DNA from: Bradyrhizobium sp. 170
Lineage (GTDB): Bacteria > Pseudomonadota > Alphaproteobacteria > Rhizobiales > Xanthobacteraceae
Assembly: GCF_023101085.1 (NCBI RefSeq)
Contig: NZ_CP064703.1
Coordinates: 5,084,001-5,148,000, forward strand
Direction: 5' to 3'
Length of the DNA: 64,000 nucleotides
Made by a program: the position numbers and the translations under genes
Shown: one piece after another, positions 15,084-18,229 of the stretch
How the letters are laid out: every line of letters starts with the position of its first letter
How positions within the stretch are numbered: the first letter of the stretch is position 1
The notes under the pieces: generated by a model
Told to the model about the DNA's origin: nothing
The model's input: the letters and a program-made list of their open reading frames with translations, nothing else
Database searches by the model: none

Positions 15084-15333
15084 CTCATTTCCCAGTTGGC
15101 AATACAACGCACGCGTGCCGCGAAGCTCTTTCTTGTCGTTTTGGATGGGGCACCAATCTAGCGCCTGCTTTTCATAAAATCAGGGGCACCTTACTCCCGC
15201 TTGCCACGCGTAGCGACGGGGTGCAGGAAGAATAGCAATTCTTCAGGCGTTGCCGATAGCGAGACATCGGCTTCTGATCACGCGAGCTACCGCCGGTGTC
15301 GCGTGGCGTTTGCAATTTTGTCCATTCTTCGGG
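15084..15333. other. Upstream region of the hydroxyacid oxidase
   Basis: These 250 bases should carry the minus-strand promoter of the oxidase operon. I see no gene or clear operator. Confidence 0.4.
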
Positions 15334-15362
15334 TTGACAATCCAAAATTACAAGCGTATTTC
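15334..15362 (+). promoter_or_regulatory. Sigma-70-type promoter for a structured ncRNA
   Basis: A perfect -35 box TTGACA (15334-15339) is followed after exactly 17 bases by TATTTC (15357-15362). Transcription would start near 15369. No convincing ORF lies downstream before the terminator at 15531-15565. Confidence 0.55.
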
Positions 15363-15368
15363 CCGCGC

Positions 15369-15565
15369 CCTTCGCGAGCATTGGGTTCGCGACTGAACAT
15401 GAGCCGTGTGATGAACCACAGTTGCGCAAAGCGCGTCAGACTATCGAATGGCTATCGGCCACTCGATGACGCACGCCCGGCTCATGGGAGCGATCTCGCT
15501 TAAGCGAGATCGACAGTCCGCTCTATTCGGACCCTCCTGAGCCAACCGCTCCGGAGGGTTTTTTG
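15369..15565 (+). ncRNA. Candidate structured small RNA of about 195 nt, family unknown
   Basis: Between the promoter and a strong intrinsic terminator the DNA is dense in consistent helices. These include TCGCGA/TCGCGA (15372-15377 with 15387-15392) and a 9-bp closing stem CATGAGCCG/CGGCTCATG (15398-15406 with 15478-15486). Inside that stem are GCGTC/GACGC, ATCGA/TCGAT and a TGGC-TATCG-GCCA hairpin. Further on are a perfect 22-base palindrome (15491-15512), GTCCG/CGGAC (15516-15520 with 15528-15532) and then the terminator. Reading frames across it are short and unconvincing. It does not look like 6S, tmRNA, SRP or RNase P RNA. It lies immediately upstream of the Y-RNA-like array. Confidence 0.55.
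15531..15565 (+). terminator. Rho-independent terminator
   Basis: The stem ACCCTCC (15531-15537)/GGAGGGT (15553-15559) stacks on GAGC/GCTC around a CAACC loop and is followed by an uninterrupted T tract to 15564. This is the strongest intrinsic terminator in the window. It separates the ncRNA candidate from the Y-RNA array. Confidence 0.85.
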
Positions 15566-15805
15566 TTGTCCGAAGCAGGCTCATTCGAAACATCCCGGCG
15601 CAAGCCGGAACGGGAGACCCGGATCCCGGGGCTCGCGCCGGCAGGCGCGTGCCCCGAAGCGCGGGGCCTGTCGGAGGGAACGAGGCGCAAGCCGGATACC
15701 GATGGCAGAGCGAACCCCAGGGGGTTCGCAGCAGCGGCGCCGTTCAGAGCGCCGCGAATGAAATTTGTTTTCCAATCCGGTTTGCCGCCTCTTGCGGCTA
15801 AACCG
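15566..15805. other. Leader region before the Y-RNA array
   Basis: The region is GC-rich with repeated GGCGCAAGCCGGA blocks (near 15597 and 15684). A strong hairpin lies at 15778-15805 (CGGTTT-GCCGC / GCGGC-T-AAACCG) directly against the first Y-RNA unit. It presumably contains the array promoter or a processing signal; I see no gene. Confidence 0.4.
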
Positions 15806-15989
15806 ACGCTGGTGGTGAAGATTTCGGATACTTCGCACCATGGAAAGAGCGGGTTCGAATCCCGCCCTTGACGCACGCACCGGGATGCGGCCTCGCGAGG
15901 GCTTGCACGCGGCCCGGCGCAGTTTCGCTTCCGCAAGGAGCGAAACTGCGTTGTTGTCACTGACGCCGATATTGCCTGTTCCCCAGCGT
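15806..15989 (+). ncRNA. Y-RNA-like gene, unit 1 (T-arm only tRNA mimicry)
   Basis: The terminal stem ACGCTGG/CCAGCGT (15806-15812 with 15983-15989) encloses the array's shared motifs: TGGTGAAGAT directly after the 5' arm and GCCTGTTCC directly before the 3' arm. A perfect T-arm follows (stem GCGGG/CCCGC, loop TTCGAAT, 15849-15865). The canonical D-arm is missing. In its place are a GC-rich stem and a 10-bp hairpin GCAGTTTCGC/GCGAAACTGC capped by GCAA. It is about 184 nt long, the largest of the four units, and probably binds the Ro60 homologue encoded downstream. Confidence 0.7.
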
Positions 15990-16022
15990 GCCTTTCAACT
16001 GCCGATGCGCAGGCATCGGCAG

Positions 16023-16127
16023 GGCGGTGGTGAAGATGGCTGTTACTTCGGTAGGGCGCTATGGCGCCGGGCGGGTTCAAGGCCCGTACGCCCGCAAGGG
16101 TGGCAACAGCATCGTCCGTTCCCCGCC
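16023..16127 (+). ncRNA. Y-RNA-like gene, unit 2 (degenerate tRNA-like module)
   Basis: The closing stem GGCGG/CCGCC (16023-16027 with 16123-16127) is followed by TGGTGAAGAT and preceded by GTCCGTTCC. An inner stem GCTGTT/AACAGC (16039-16044 with 16105-16110) is conserved in position with other units. Inside are a GGCGC-TATG-GCGCC hairpin, a GGGTTCAAG loop closed by CGGGC/GCCCG (T-arm-like), and CGCCC-GCAA-GGGTG. It has no D-arm signature. It is about 105 nt, the shortest unit. Confidence 0.7.
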
Positions 16128-16135
16128 AACTCTCT

Positions 16136-16303
16136 CCACGGTCCGTGGTGAAGATCGCTGTTACATCGTCTTTGGAACGAGAGGTCGCGGGTTCGAATCC
16201 CGCCCGGCGTCATGTGCGCTGGTAGCTCAGTGGTAGAGCGCTTCCCAATCGGCAGGGTAAGCTGCCGATCGGGGTCTCAGCATCGCCTGTTCCCGGATCG
16301 TGG
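16136..16303 (+). ncRNA. Y-RNA-like gene, unit 3 with circularly permuted tRNA-like module (YrlA-like)
   Basis: A 10-bp terminal stem CCACGGTCCG/CGGATCGTGG (one G-U) encloses TGGTGAAGAT and GCCTGTTCC. The module reads in permuted order. First is a T-arm (GCGGG-TTCGAAT-CCCGC, 16187-16203), then an acceptor-like stem CCGGCG/CGCTGG closed by loop TCATGTG, then a perfect D-arm (GCTC-AGTGGTA-GAGC, 16225-16239), then a hairpin ATCGGCAG/CTGCCGAT. Permutation through the anticodon stem is what is known for bacterial YrlA Y RNAs. The D-arm alone could mislead a tRNA finder. Confidence 0.85.
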
Positions 16304-16313
16304 TTTCCAAAAT

Positions 16314-16450
16314 GCCGGTGGTGAAGAGTTCTGTTACTTCGCACTCACAAGGTCGAAGGTTCGATTCCTTCCGGACGATAAGTCCGTAGCTCAGAGGGAG
16401 AGCGTGTGACAACGCCCGCAAGGGCAGTACAGCCTCGCCCGTTCCCCGGC
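16314..16450 (+). ncRNA. Y-RNA-like gene, unit 4 with circularly permuted tRNA-like module (YrlA-like)
   Basis: The terminal stem GCCGG/CCGGC (16314-16318 with 16446-16450) encloses TGGTGAAGAG and GCCCGTTCC. The permuted module is clear: T-arm GAAGG-TTCGATT-CCTTC (16355-16371), acceptor-like CGGAC-GATAA-GTCCG (16372-16386), D-arm GCTC-AGAGGGA-GAGC (16389-16403) and a GCCC-GCAA-GGGC hairpin. Relative to units 2 and 3 the base pairs GAU/AUC are replaced by GAG/CUC, a compensatory change. The unit ends 39 bases before the rsr start codon. Confidence 0.85.
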
Positions 16451-16489
16451 GCCCTTTCCGATCAATAATCAACCCTAGAGGAGGCCGTC

Positions 16490-17740
16490 ATGGTCAGACT
16501 GAACAAGATCGTTCGCGCTCTCACCTTCGAGGGCGCGCCGGCCAAGCGCTTCACGCCAGAGATGGCGCTGAGGCGCGCGCTGATGAACTGCCTCCCGTGG
16601 GAGAGCCAGTTCTACGAGGATGGCGTTGCGATCGCCGAGCGTATCAAGGCGCTGGTGCCGCAGGTCGATCCCGCGCGCGTCGCGGCGCTCGCCATCGAGG
16701 CGCGCGAGGTGATGAAGCTTCGGCATGCGCCGCTGCTGGTGGTGCGCGAGATGGCGCGGCACGAGAAGCATCGTGCGCTCGTCGCCGATACCCTGGCCCA
16801 TTTGATCCAGCGCCCCGACGAGATGACGGAGCTGCTTGCAATCTACTGGGCGGATGCGCTCGGACCGATGCAGCAGCGCAAGCGTCAGCCCGTCTCGGCG
16901 CAGGTCAAGAAGGGCCTGGCGCGCGCGGTGACCAAGTTCGACGCCTATCAGCTTGCGAAGTACGACCGCGACGGCGCGGTGCGTATCAGGGACGTCCTGT
17001 TCCTGGTCCACGCCAAGCCGAAGGACGCGGACCAGGCCAAGGTGTGGAAGCAGCTCGTCGACGGCGAACTGGCTTCTCCCGACACCTGGGAGGTTTCGCT
17101 TTCGTCCGGCAAGGACAAGCGCGCGACCTTCGAGCGGCTGATCGCCGAGAACAGGCTGGGCGGCCTCGCGCTGCTCCGCAATCTGCGCCTGATGCAGAAG
17201 GCGGAGGTGCCGCGCAGCACCATCGCGGAGGCCATCGAGGCGATGCGGACCGACCGCATCCTTCCCTACCGCTTCATCACGGCGGCGCGCTATGCGCCGG
17301 ATTTCGAGCCCGAGCTCGAATCCGCGATGCTGAAGTCGATCAAGGGCTATGCGCGGCTTCCGGGCCGCACGCGGCTCCTGATCGACGTGTCGGGATCGAT
17401 GTTCTATCCGCTCTCGGCGCAGTCGGAGATGACCCGCGCTGAGGCGGCCTGCGGTCTGGCGATCCTCGCCCGCGAAGTCTGTGACGAGGTGGAGACCTTC
17501 ACGTTCAGCAATGAGGTCGTGAAGATTCCGCCGCGCGAGATCGACCGCAAGGGCGATCGCCTGATCGTCTTCACCGACGAGCAGAGCCACGACACCGTCC
17601 CCGACCCCAGGGGTCGCGGCACCATGGTGAATGTGGCCTCGTACCAGCACGGTGTCGGATACGATGCGTGGACGCGTGTGCACGGCTTCTCGGAAGCCGT
17701 GATCGCGTGGATCGCGGCTTCGGAAGAGACGAAGCATTGA
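16490..17740 (+). CDS. rsr: Ro60 homologue, TROVE and vWA domain RNA-binding protein
   Basis: This is a 416-residue protein. Residues 1-285 form the HEAT-like TROVE ring (ALMNCLPWESQFYEDG, KLRHAPLLVVREMARH). Residues 290-416 form a vWA-like domain with the MIDAS motif D299-V-S301-G-S303. Ro60 and bacterial Rsr bind misfolded RNA in the ring and Y RNA on the outside, and in bacteria tether it to PNPase. The ATG has GAGGAGG upstream. Four Y-RNA-like genes directly precede it. Oddity: between VVKIPPRE and DRLIVFTDEQS I see none of the GGTxLG segment that normally supplies the MIDAS threonine, so the vWA domain looks internally shortened. No rtcB or rtcA follows. Confidence 0.9.
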   Translation: MVRLNKIVRALTFEGAPAKRFTPEMALRRALMNCLPWESQFYEDGVAIAERIKALVPQVDPARVAALAIEAREVMKLRHAPLLVVREMARHEKHRALVADTLAHLIQRPDEMTELLAIYWADALGPMQQRKRQPVSAQVKKGLARAVTKFDAYQLAKYDRDGAVRIRDVLFLVHAKPKDADQAKVWKQLVDGELASPDTWEVSLSSGKDKRATFERLIAENRLGGLALLRNLRLMQKAEVPRSTIAEAIEAMRTDRILPYRFITAARYAPDFEPELESAMLKSIKGYARLPGRTRLLIDVSGSMFYPLSAQSEMTRAEAACGLAILAREVCDEVETFTFSNEVVKIPPREIDRKGDRLIVFTDEQSHDTVPDPRGRGTMVNVASYQHGVGYDAWTRVHGFSEAVIAWIAASEETKH

Positions 17741-17761
17741 TCCATCTGTGACAACAAGTAC

Positions 17762-17787
17762 CCCGGGCGCGCCAACACGCGCCCGGG
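17762..17787 (+). terminator. GC-rich hairpin after rsr
   Basis: A perfect 10-bp stem CCCGGGCGCG/CGCGCCCGGG with a 6-base loop lies 21 bases after the rsr stop. The following T content is low (CATTCATTG), so it may work as a terminator for both converging genes or as an mRNA 3' stabiliser. Confidence 0.5.
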
Positions 17788-17815
17788 CATTCATTGAAAT
17801 CACGCCGTCTGCATC

Positions 17816-18229
17816 TCAGCCGGGCGGCATCTTGTCGAATTTTCGCGCGGCCGGATCGGGATGATCCCAGGCGTGGCCGGCAGCGGTCCATAAAACTTTC
17901 TGTGGCTTGTATCGGCTGGGATCGTCAAGGCTTCCCGCGTGGACGATGAAGATCTCGGGAATGCCGGGGAATGTCAGATAGACCGGTGAGCCGCATGTCG
18001 GGCAGAAGGCGCGGGACTTGACCGTTCCACCGTCACCGACCAGGTCCCAATGCTTCGCCTCGCCCTCGGCCTTCACGGCCGGCCGCGGAAACGTCAAATA
18101 GGATCCGTGGCCGGTGCCGCTCTTGCGCTGGCACTGACGGCACTGGCAATCGTTCATCTCGATCGGTTGGGCAGAGATTTCATATCGGATCGCGCCGCAG
18201 GCGCATCCGCCGGTGTAAGCTTCACTCAT
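17816..18229 (-). CDS. GFA (glutathione-dependent formaldehyde-activating)/CENP-V fold protein
   Basis: This is a 137-residue zinc protein. Paired cysteines appear as GGCACGAIRYE, DCQCRQCQRKSG and FCPTCGSPVY, the standard GFA metal-binding layout. The start is the ATG at 18229 (MSEAYTGGCACG) with GGAAGA upstream, rather than an in-frame ATG nine codons earlier. GFA-fold proteins are usually annotated as carbon-sulfur lyases, but most have no proven substrate. It may be the last gene of the ArsR-led operon (66-base gap after the small membrane protein), though this is uncertain. Confidence 0.85.
   Translation of the reverse strand: MSEAYTGGCACGAIRYEISAQPIEMNDCQCRQCQRKSGTGHGSYLTFPRPAVKAEGEAKHWDLVGDGGTVKSRAFCPTCGSPVYLTFPGIPEIFIVHAGSLDDPSRYKPQKVLWTAAGHAWDHPDPAARKFDKMPPG

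What the first reader, a model, noticed from the sequence alone, without database searches (positions are those of the whole stretch)
15806..16490. Tandem array of four Y-RNA-like genes, two with circularly permuted tRNA-like modules, directly upstream of a Ro60 homologue
Each unit has a terminal stem of different sequence (ACGCTGG, GGCGG, CCACGGTCCG, GCCGG, each matched by its complement). Inside it, at fixed positions, are TGGTGAAGA(T/G) and G(C/T)C(C/T)GTTCC. The stems covary between units, including a GAU/AUC to GAG/CUC change. Units 3 and 4 contain T-arm, then acceptor-like stem, then D-arm, which is the permuted order known for YrlA. Unit 1 keeps only the T-arm, and unit 2 has a degenerate module. 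Bacterial Rsr loci usually show one or two Y RNAs, so four diverging paralogues suggest a family with different RNA modules presented to one Ro60 protein.
Basis: partly seen in the sequence, partly recalled or inferred. Interest (0 to 1): 0.92.

Follow-up and report, generated by a model that had tools for sequence, protein, structure and literature searches.

The report
Tandem Y-RNA array beside Rsr gene
In front of a bacterial Ro60 gene lie four conserved small-RNA genes with one shared stem but different heads, and in related bacteria one of these heads is a whole tRNA-like fold cut open at an unusual place.

Summary
Window 15806-16450 holds four tandem Y-RNA-like genes ending 39 nt before an Rsr (TROVE) gene in a 9.2 Mb Bradyrhizobium genome. 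The same units occur 291 times upstream of rsr in 90 distinct loci (0.004 per locus in resampled sequence). Covariation supports units 1, 3 and 4 and the full form of unit 2. Units 3 and 4 resemble YrlA.

Two readings needed correction. Unit 1 is more than a T-arm: it has a conserved ~100-nt domain. Unit 2 is a remnant. In many relatives it is a whole cloverleaf (acceptor, D, anticodon-like and T stems) circularly permuted with the break in the D-loop, not in the anticodon arm as in YrlA. I found this form in Bradyrhizobium, Hyphomonadaceae, two further alphaproteobacterial genomes and, by reading and folding, one Acidobacteriota MAG; Rfam's YrlA model matched none of the 8 tested. Unit 2's module changed state at least 18 times on the rsr tree while its stem stayed. 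Arrays reach seven units. A fifth structured block upstream occurs in 16 of 17 rsr-positive and 0 of 43 rsr-negative genomes.

Expression, binding and function are untested. New variant of a known kind.

The parts
15806..15989 (+). Y-RNA-like unit 1 (184 nt): shared stem, T-arm (15849-15865) and a conserved ~100-nt domain (about 15866-15963)
   Evidence: R1 34.3 bits; alignment A1, 49 pairs, 10 with double changes, 0 of 500 shuffles as high on any of the five measures; domain found beyond the Bradyrhizobium clade
16023..16127 (+). Y-RNA-like unit 2 (105 nt): shared stem, degenerate module; orthologues carry a cloverleaf permuted in the D-loop
   Evidence: R1 79.2 bits; alignments A4 and A5; nearest relatives L002 and L003 have the fuller module
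16136..16303 (+). Y-RNA-like unit 3 (168 nt), YrlA-like: T-arm 16187-16203, acceptor-like stem, D-arm 16225-16239
   Evidence: Rfam RF02553 41.7 bits, E 1.3e-7, below the gathering score of 69; A2 covariation
16314..16450 (+). Y-RNA-like unit 4 (137 nt), YrlA-like: T-arm 16355-16371, acceptor-like stem, D-arm 16389-16403; 39 nt lie between its end and the rsr start codon
   Evidence: Rfam RF02553 37.5 bits, E 2.2e-6, below the gathering score of 69; A3 covariation
16490..17740 (+). rsr, Ro60/TROVE homologue (416 aa); lacks 25 residues that all 28 aligned relatives have
   Evidence: Pfam TROVE 51.8 bits, E 9.6e-14; profile of A6 matches solved TROVE chains 9l5y and 9kop at 3e-40 and RO60 9nen at 3.6e-5; A6
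15588..15764 (+). fifth conserved, structured block upstream of unit 1; no Y-RNA stem seen; linked to rsr
   Evidence: 16 of 17 rsr-positive and 0 of 43 rsr-negative genomes; A8, 48 predicted pairs, 6 with double changes

Best explanation
These are four Y-RNA-like RNAs for the adjacent Rsr, transcribed together ahead of rsr and cut apart. The stem shared by all units (GGUGAAGA...GUUCC) is the Rsr handle. The heads differ so that one ring protein can be dressed with different adaptors: two YrlA-like tRNA mimics (units 3, 4), one RNA with a T-arm plus a separate conserved domain (unit 1), and one (unit 2) whose fuller head in relatives is a whole cloverleaf permuted in the D-loop and which has decayed in the window species. 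Likely action: Rsr bound to one of the RNAs is steered to, or gated from, partners that recognise tRNA-like shapes (PNPase, tRNA-modifying or tRNA-cutting enzymes). Shown by sequence: the units, their stems, covariation, the two permutations, linkage to rsr, module turnover. Inferred: expression, joint transcript, cutting, Rsr binding, and the adaptor role.
For: 291 units in 90 distinct rsr loci, none on the reverse strand. Covariation beyond most controls for units 1, 3, 4 and for the D-loop form of unit 2. RF02553 matches units 3 and 4. D-loop permutation: 20 of 20 pattern-selected, trimmed modules score higher against a tRNA profile when rejoined in the D-loop (8.0-35.1 bits) than in native order (6.8-19.3), and the best of all rotations lies 3-7 nt from the predicted opening in 20 of 20; top of 1000 Markov resamplings 4.9 bits. 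Folding with no tRNA knowledge gives the whole cloverleaf closed by GAGC/GCUC in 3 of 6 D-loop forms tried. Units are close together (206 spacers, median 14 nt, 114 of 15 nt or less; last unit to ATG median 40 nt in 85 loci), leaving little room for separate promoters. Stem kept while unit 2's module changed at least 18 times.
Against: No expression or binding data. No sigma-70 consensus in 15100-17900, so the transcription start is unknown. The window's unit 2 is degenerate and its Rsr lacks 25 otherwise conserved residues, so this copy may be partly impaired. In 3 of 6 folded D-loop forms the D-stem is not in the minimum-energy structure, and single-sequence folding of the window's units 2 and 4 is only mildly better than shuffles (z -1.36 and -1.76) and does not give unit 4's D-arm. 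D-stem pairs show no covariation because they hardly vary. PNPase tethering is reported for other species (PMC4726728 and PMC8394870, passages) and only inferred here.
Confidence: 0.72

Rival explanations
1. The array is mainly a cis-acting leader of the rsr message: Rsr binds the stems in its own transcript and so controls its own synthesis; the separate RNAs are by-products.
For: The last unit ends a median of 40 nt before the start codon (85 loci; 62 within 60 nt), and spacers are very short.
Against: The heads are elaborate and conserved by class, which a pure leader would not need; YrlA is described as a free modular RNA in other bacteria (PMC8394870, passages).
Confidence: 0.13
2. Decoys: the tRNA-like heads are baits against enzymes that cut or modify tRNAs (for example in phage conflict), with Rsr as stabiliser.
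For: In 4 of 7 phage records examined the TROVE gene has an array of 3-6 R1 matches upstream; about five heads carry Leu-, Gln- or Pro-type D-arms; unit 2's module turns over fast. A competitive-inhibitor role is suggested for YrlA in PMC7790460 (passages).
Against: By eye the anticodon-like hairpins of the D-loop forms lack a regular 7-nt anticodon loop; fragments of Salmonella YrlA were not detected, so it is not cut by that nuclease (PMC7790460, passages); most D-arms are of the common type.
Confidence: 0.25
3. The D-loop forms are precursors of real tRNAs, like the permuted tRNA genes of algae.
For: Whole cloverleaf; a D-loop junction is known among C. merolae permuted tRNA genes (PMC3978253, passages).
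Against: The acceptor-like stem has only 4-5 pairs capped by a short loop in most forms (GAAA, GCAA and the like; longer in L075), with no CCA end and no room for tRNA end processing.
Confidence: 0.02
4. The D-loop permutation is an accident of stringing hairpins together, not a real tRNA fold.
For: D-stem pairs do not covary; of 19 aligned forms 4 break the first D-stem pair and 1 the second. Modules in the rotation test were chosen by a pattern that asks for some of these letters, and the gain is small in L039 and L051. 3 of 6 folds lack the D-stem.
Against: Near-full-length profile match on rejoining; unprompted cloverleaf fold in L057, L074 and L075; GG of the D-loop kept in 24 of 25 listed modules; the class recovered in genomes not used to build R1 (L053, L061, L072; G020; G762).
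Confidence: 0.1

Closest known systems
YrlA (Rfam RF02553; Salmonella and Mycobacterium smegmatis)
   Same: Rsr-linked RNA with a basal stem and a circularly permuted T-arm/acceptor/D-arm head; units 3 and 4 match the model with significant E-values
   Different: Scores lie below the gathering score; unit 1 has another domain; unit 2 orthologues break the cloverleaf in the D-loop, and none of the 8 tested is matched by RF02553 at E up to 0.05
YrlB and the Y RNA of Deinococcus radiodurans (recalled, and named in passages of PMC7790460; the primary papers were not held)
   Same: Y RNAs encoded next to rsr; Salmonella has more than one per locus
   Different: I recall no D-loop-broken cloverleaf and no array of this size there; not verified
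Circularly permuted tRNA genes of Cyanidioschyzon merolae (type I, D-loop junction; PMC3978253, passages)
   Same: Cloverleaf permuted within the D-loop
   Different: Those are tRNA genes; here the acceptor end is a short capped stem inside a Y-RNA-like unit
rsr-yrlBA-rtcBA RNA repair operon of Salmonella (PMC7790460, passages)
   Same: rsr and Y RNAs together
   Different: No rtcB at this locus: the nearest RtcB match in the genome is about 420 kb away; here the RNAs precede rsr

Membership tests
Bacterial Y RNA / YrlA | Encoded next to a Ro60/Rsr gene | tested here: met
   conserved placing in relatives
Bacterial Y RNA / YrlA | Long terminal stem with conserved motifs, shown by comparison | tested here: met
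Bacterial Y RNA / YrlA | Rfam RF02553 at gathering score (69 bits) | tested here: not met
   No family at gathering in the window; units 3 and 4 score 41.7 and 37.5 bits. They are therefore called YrlA-like, not filed as YrlA
Bacterial Y RNA / YrlA | Permuted head in the order T-arm, acceptor-like stem, D-arm | tested here: met
   Units 3 and 4 only; units 1 and 2 do not meet it
Bacterial Y RNA / YrlA | Stable RNA bound by Rsr | not testable with these tools
   -
Ro60/TROVE protein (Rsr) | TROVE domain above the Pfam cut-off | tested here: met
   51.8 bits against 23;
Ro60/TROVE protein (Rsr) | HEAT-repeat ring and vWA fold by structure model | not tested
Transfer RNA gene | Cloverleaf in ordinary order, recognised by ARAGORN or by Rfam at its cut-off | tested here: not met
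   None in the window
RNA repair operon (rtc) | rtcB beside rsr | tested here: not met

The most novel reading that the evidence does not exclude
Rsr loci carry a second natural class of permuted tRNA mimic, broken in the D-loop between about positions 15 and 18 so that the elbow letters are kept, beside the known anticodon-arm-broken class and a third kind of head (unit 1). Together they form a swappable adaptor set for one ring protein, present in Alphaproteobacteria and at least one Acidobacteriota MAG, while Y-RNA arrays of other make-up occur in phages.
Probability: 0.55. Interest if true: 0.78.

Novelty: new variant of a known kind. Interest (0 to 1): 0.62.

Why it matters
It gives natural side-by-side variants on one protein: same handle, different heads, one of them with the tRNA fold opened at another point. 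That makes it possible to test what the tRNA mimicry of bacterial Y RNAs is for, which is still open. It also suggests that Y-RNA heads are lost or exchanged quickly while the handle stays, and offers a model (R1) that finds Y-RNA arrays which Rfam's YrlA model covers only in part.

Tried and rejected
Rejected: ordinary tRNA genes; a chance pattern; an rtc repair operon; a Rfam family for the D-loop form (no RF02553 match to any of 8; one 18-nt tmRNA match of 15.6 bits lies in L072's) or for the fifth block (only MH_s36 at E 0.2).

Weak: the idea that different paralogues mimic different tRNAs. Of 173 D-strand pattern hits among 282 modules, 147 are the common GCTC; about five are Pro-, Gln- or Leu-type; several other strings are false hits. 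My pattern classifier of modules is crude: it missed at least L014, L025, L027, L039 and L051, so I used R1 scores and alignments instead. A consensus fold of the unit 1 domain over distant loci gave one hairpin region only. R1 was sparse outside the clade: 14 of 199 genomes of the order at E up to 0.001, where all beyond G000, G020 and G591 are single weak matches, and 6 of 337 of the class at E up to 1e-4.

Rows set aside: one search kept 80 of 110 relatives; one search gave loci for 30 of 59 matching genomes; after removal of duplicates 90 distinct loci remained. Alignments A1-A5 and the tree use chosen subsets: A1 31, A2 32, A3 32, A4 32 and A5 19 sequences, tree 48 rows; loci with a unit count other than 4, such as L016 and L024, were left out of A1-A4 and of the tree states where unit 2 could not be scored.

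Not read, because not held: the 2014 survey of bacterial Y RNAs, the 2018 review and the 2018 YrlA structure paper. So 'not described' means only 'not found in the nine searches'. Of all papers cited I saw search listings and passages only.
Full report
What is there. The window is part of a 9.2 Mb genome whose nearest named relatives at this locus are Bradyrhizobium. Upstream of a TROVE gene (16490-17740; Pfam E 9.6e-14) lie four units at 15806-15989, 16023-16127, 16136-16303 and 16314-16450. Each has its own terminal stem and the shared letters TGGTGAAGA(T/G) ... G(C/T)C(C/T)GTTCC inside it.

Chance and conservation. A finder that asks only for the two short motifs and complementary flanks gives 291 units in up to 1500 nt upstream of rsr in 90 distinct loci, against 0.0044 per locus in Markov-resampled sequence and none on the reverse strand. 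Over these 90 loci the counts are 0 in 5, 1 in 5, 2 in 9, 3 in 22, 4 in 44, 5 in 4 and 6 in 1; in the Bradyrhizobium clade with enough sequence 38 of 55 have four and 15 three. A covariance model (R1) gives 296 matches at E up to 0.1 in 81 sources, all listed on the rsr strand, and in the window these four and nothing else above 14.8 bits. Only part of the genus has the locus: 59 of 195 genomes match Rsr; in the phylum 9 of 398 match the TROVE family.

Structure. Orthologous alignments of unit 1 (31 sequences), unit 3 (32) and unit 4 (32) support the folds: 97.6, 98.1 and 98.0 percent of cells paired, with 10, 10 and 5 pairs changed on both sides; slid controls pair at most 52.7 percent of cells. 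Against 500 shuffles none is as high on cells paired, cells with double changes or covariation score in any of the three; for the number of pairs with double changes 0, 7 and 1 shuffles, and for pair types 0, 20 and 5, reach the observed value (units 1, 3, 4). Related sequences can exceed such shuffles without structure, and the folds were derived from these same alignments. Rfam at gathering thresholds finds nothing in the window; with E-values YrlA matches units 3 and 4 at 1.3e-7 and 2.2e-6, below the curated score. Single-sequence folding of the window's unit 2 and unit 4 is only mildly better than shuffles (z -1.36, -1.76).

Unit 1. It has a T-arm in the window, but this arm is not the constant part. 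In 12 of 31 aligned core sequences the T-loop is altered (ATGCCT or similar), and in L044, L046-L049, L057 and L063 the arm is changed or gone. The constant part is a domain with CGTACCGTGGA, a hairpin and about WCGCGGG. The exact letters CGTACCGTGGA stand in 14 of the 31 non-core loci listed and also in L058 and L008. Most Bradyrhizobium have a changed form (ACCGGG with CCCGG); L039, a MAG of the same clade, has ACCGTGG with CCACGG, and L004 and L037 have CCGGGG with CCCCGG. Its function is unknown to me; I propose a second protein-binding head.

Unit 2, the main new point. In many relatives unit 2 reads GG-TA-GAGC ... anticodon-like hairpin ... AGGTC ... GCGGGTTCGAATCCCGC-CGGC-loop-GCCG-TA-GCTC-AGT. 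This is a tRNA in circular order, opened between the AG of positions 14-15 and the GG of positions 18-19 of the D-loop. Tests: (1) With a profile made from 29 class-I tRNAs of the own genome, all 20 modules chosen by pattern, with the junction trimmed, score higher when rejoined at the D-loop (8.0-35.1 bits; profile positions about 5-67 of 76) than in native order (6.8-19.3). Of all rotations the best lies 3-7 nt from the predicted opening in 20 of 20; the top of 1000 resampled sequences is 4.9 bits. The gain is small in L039 (13.1 to 13.5) and L051 (6.8 to 8.0). (2) A 19-sequence alignment over Bradyrhizobium and Hyphomonadaceae-type loci has 95.6 percent of cells paired and 11 pairs with double changes, with 0 of 500 shuffles as high on any measure. 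Double changes lie in the anticodon-like, T, acceptor-like and flanking stems; the D-stem has none. (3) Minimum-energy folding gives the entire cloverleaf, closed by GAGC/GCUC with 1, 5 and 2 linker letters, in L074, L057 and the Acidobacteriota MAG L075; in L019, L013 and L178 the D-stem is missing from the optimum. (4) GG at 18-19 is kept in 24 of 25 listed modules, a list partly chosen by that pattern. (5) R1 recovers the form in genomes not used to build it: L053, L061, L072, G020 of the genus (173.4 bits) and G762 of another order (121.9 bits). By R1 above 110 bits 20 of 81 sources have it, 17 of these 20 being training rows. L075 scores 71.8 bits, within the range of ordinary units, and rests on reading and folding. 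(6) In eight loci with the form, RF02553 at E up to 0.05 matches another unit in every locus but none of the eight D-loop forms.

Evolution. On a tree of 48 rsr genes the state of unit 2 (whole, without D-arm, T-arm only, no module; assigned by me from length and R1 score) needs at least 18 changes, and whole versus not at least 11. Shuffled labels need 22.7 on average for the four states, as low in 2 of 200. This is a quick tree with 15 open forks. The nearest relatives of the window, L002 and L003 (Rsr 94 and 93 percent identical), have the fuller module, so the window's copy has probably decayed recently; the handle stem is intact. I read this as heads under fast turnover on a constant handle; gene conversion or transfer between strains could give the same pattern.

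Surroundings. The units are packed (206 spacers, median 14 nt, 114 of 15 nt or less), and the last one ends a median of 40 nt before the start codon. This suggests one transcript that is cut; no sigma-70 consensus was seen. Upstream, block 15588-15764 is strongly conserved (19 sequences, mean column identity 81 percent; 48 predicted pairs, 6 with double changes). It occurs in 16 of 17 rsr-positive and in none of 43 rsr-negative genomes of 60 (Fisher p 1.1e-13, ignoring kinship); the exception G036 has only distant TROVE genes of about 50 percent identity. Its letters GAGACCCGGAT recur in 12 of 24 further loci searched, and in none of the ten Hyphomonadaceae-type loci among them. It may be another RNA of the system or a leader. 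A stretch further up (15395-15565), with a terminator-like end, is found in 18 of 60 genomes, two of which (G041, G058) lack rsr.

Wider spread. Seven phage records with a TROVE gene and one Deinococcus plasmid were examined. R1 finds, upstream of the gene, 6 matches in Caulobacter phage CcrColossus, 5 and 4 in two Brevundimonas phages and 3 in a Xanthomonas phage (E from 3e-9 to 0.012). It finds none upstream in the Rhizobium phage (where RF02553 has two weak matches), crAss001 or the Microcystis phage, and one strong match on the plasmid. No D-loop form was noticed among the phage units printed. Published work already reports Y RNAs in bacteria and mycobacteriophages (as told in PMC12282133, passages), and YrlA as a circularly permuted tRNA mimic (PMC11472068, passages; PMC8394870, passages).

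Mechanism. Reported for other bacteria: Rsr binds the lower stem of Y RNA, and Y RNA tethers PNPase or gates access to RNA (PMC4726728, passages; PMC8394870, passages). The most economical reading here is one Rsr with several RNA adaptors. Against a tRNA-precursor reading stands the 4-5 bp acceptor stem with its short loop and no CCA. A decoy role against tRNA-cutting enzymes remains open. Nothing here shows expression or binding.

Verdict. Real and conserved; a richer variant of the Y-RNA kind, with one feature (the D-loop-broken cloverleaf) that I have not found described, though the primary literature could not be read.

Noticed in passing
window 17536/17537 (Rsr residues 349/350): The window's Rsr lacks 25 residues of the vWA part (RGFALRD...SQPH..TYLGKA in relatives) that all 28 aligned relatives have; I recall that this part holds a metal-site threonine. 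The frame stays open. Real deletion or assembly fault not decided.
   Followed up: partly
window 15588-15764: Strongly conserved structured block without Rfam match at gathering score, linked to rsr in the genus.
   Followed up: partly
window 15395-15565: Conserved stretch with hairpins and a run of T after the last one, like a small RNA with its own terminator; also in two genomes without rsr and as a second copy in G043.
   Followed up: partly
L166 2120-2292 and L163 2764-2903: Phage records annotate tRNA-Gln and tRNA-Ser inside what R1 calls Y-RNA units upstream of the phage TROVE gene; probably misannotated Y RNAs.
   Followed up: partly
L163 6341-6686 and L165 6769-7024: Permuted tmRNA (RF04321) matches above the gathering score downstream of the TROVE gene in two Brevundimonas phages.
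   Followed up: no
L071 unit 2, L064 unit 2, L038 unit 3, L040 unit 1, L041 unit 3: A few YrlA-like heads have Leu-, Gln- or Pro-type D-arms in place of the common one.
   Followed up: partly
L055 units 2-4, L062 unit 4, L059 unit 3, L069 2081-2187; L057 unit 1, L059 unit 1, L062 unit 1, L074 unit 1: Hyphomonadaceae-type arrays hold a further short class (GATCGCGTTCTTCG ... CTCC..GGAGG ... TCGCG) without a T-arm motif, and very short units of 68-72 nt.
   Followed up: no
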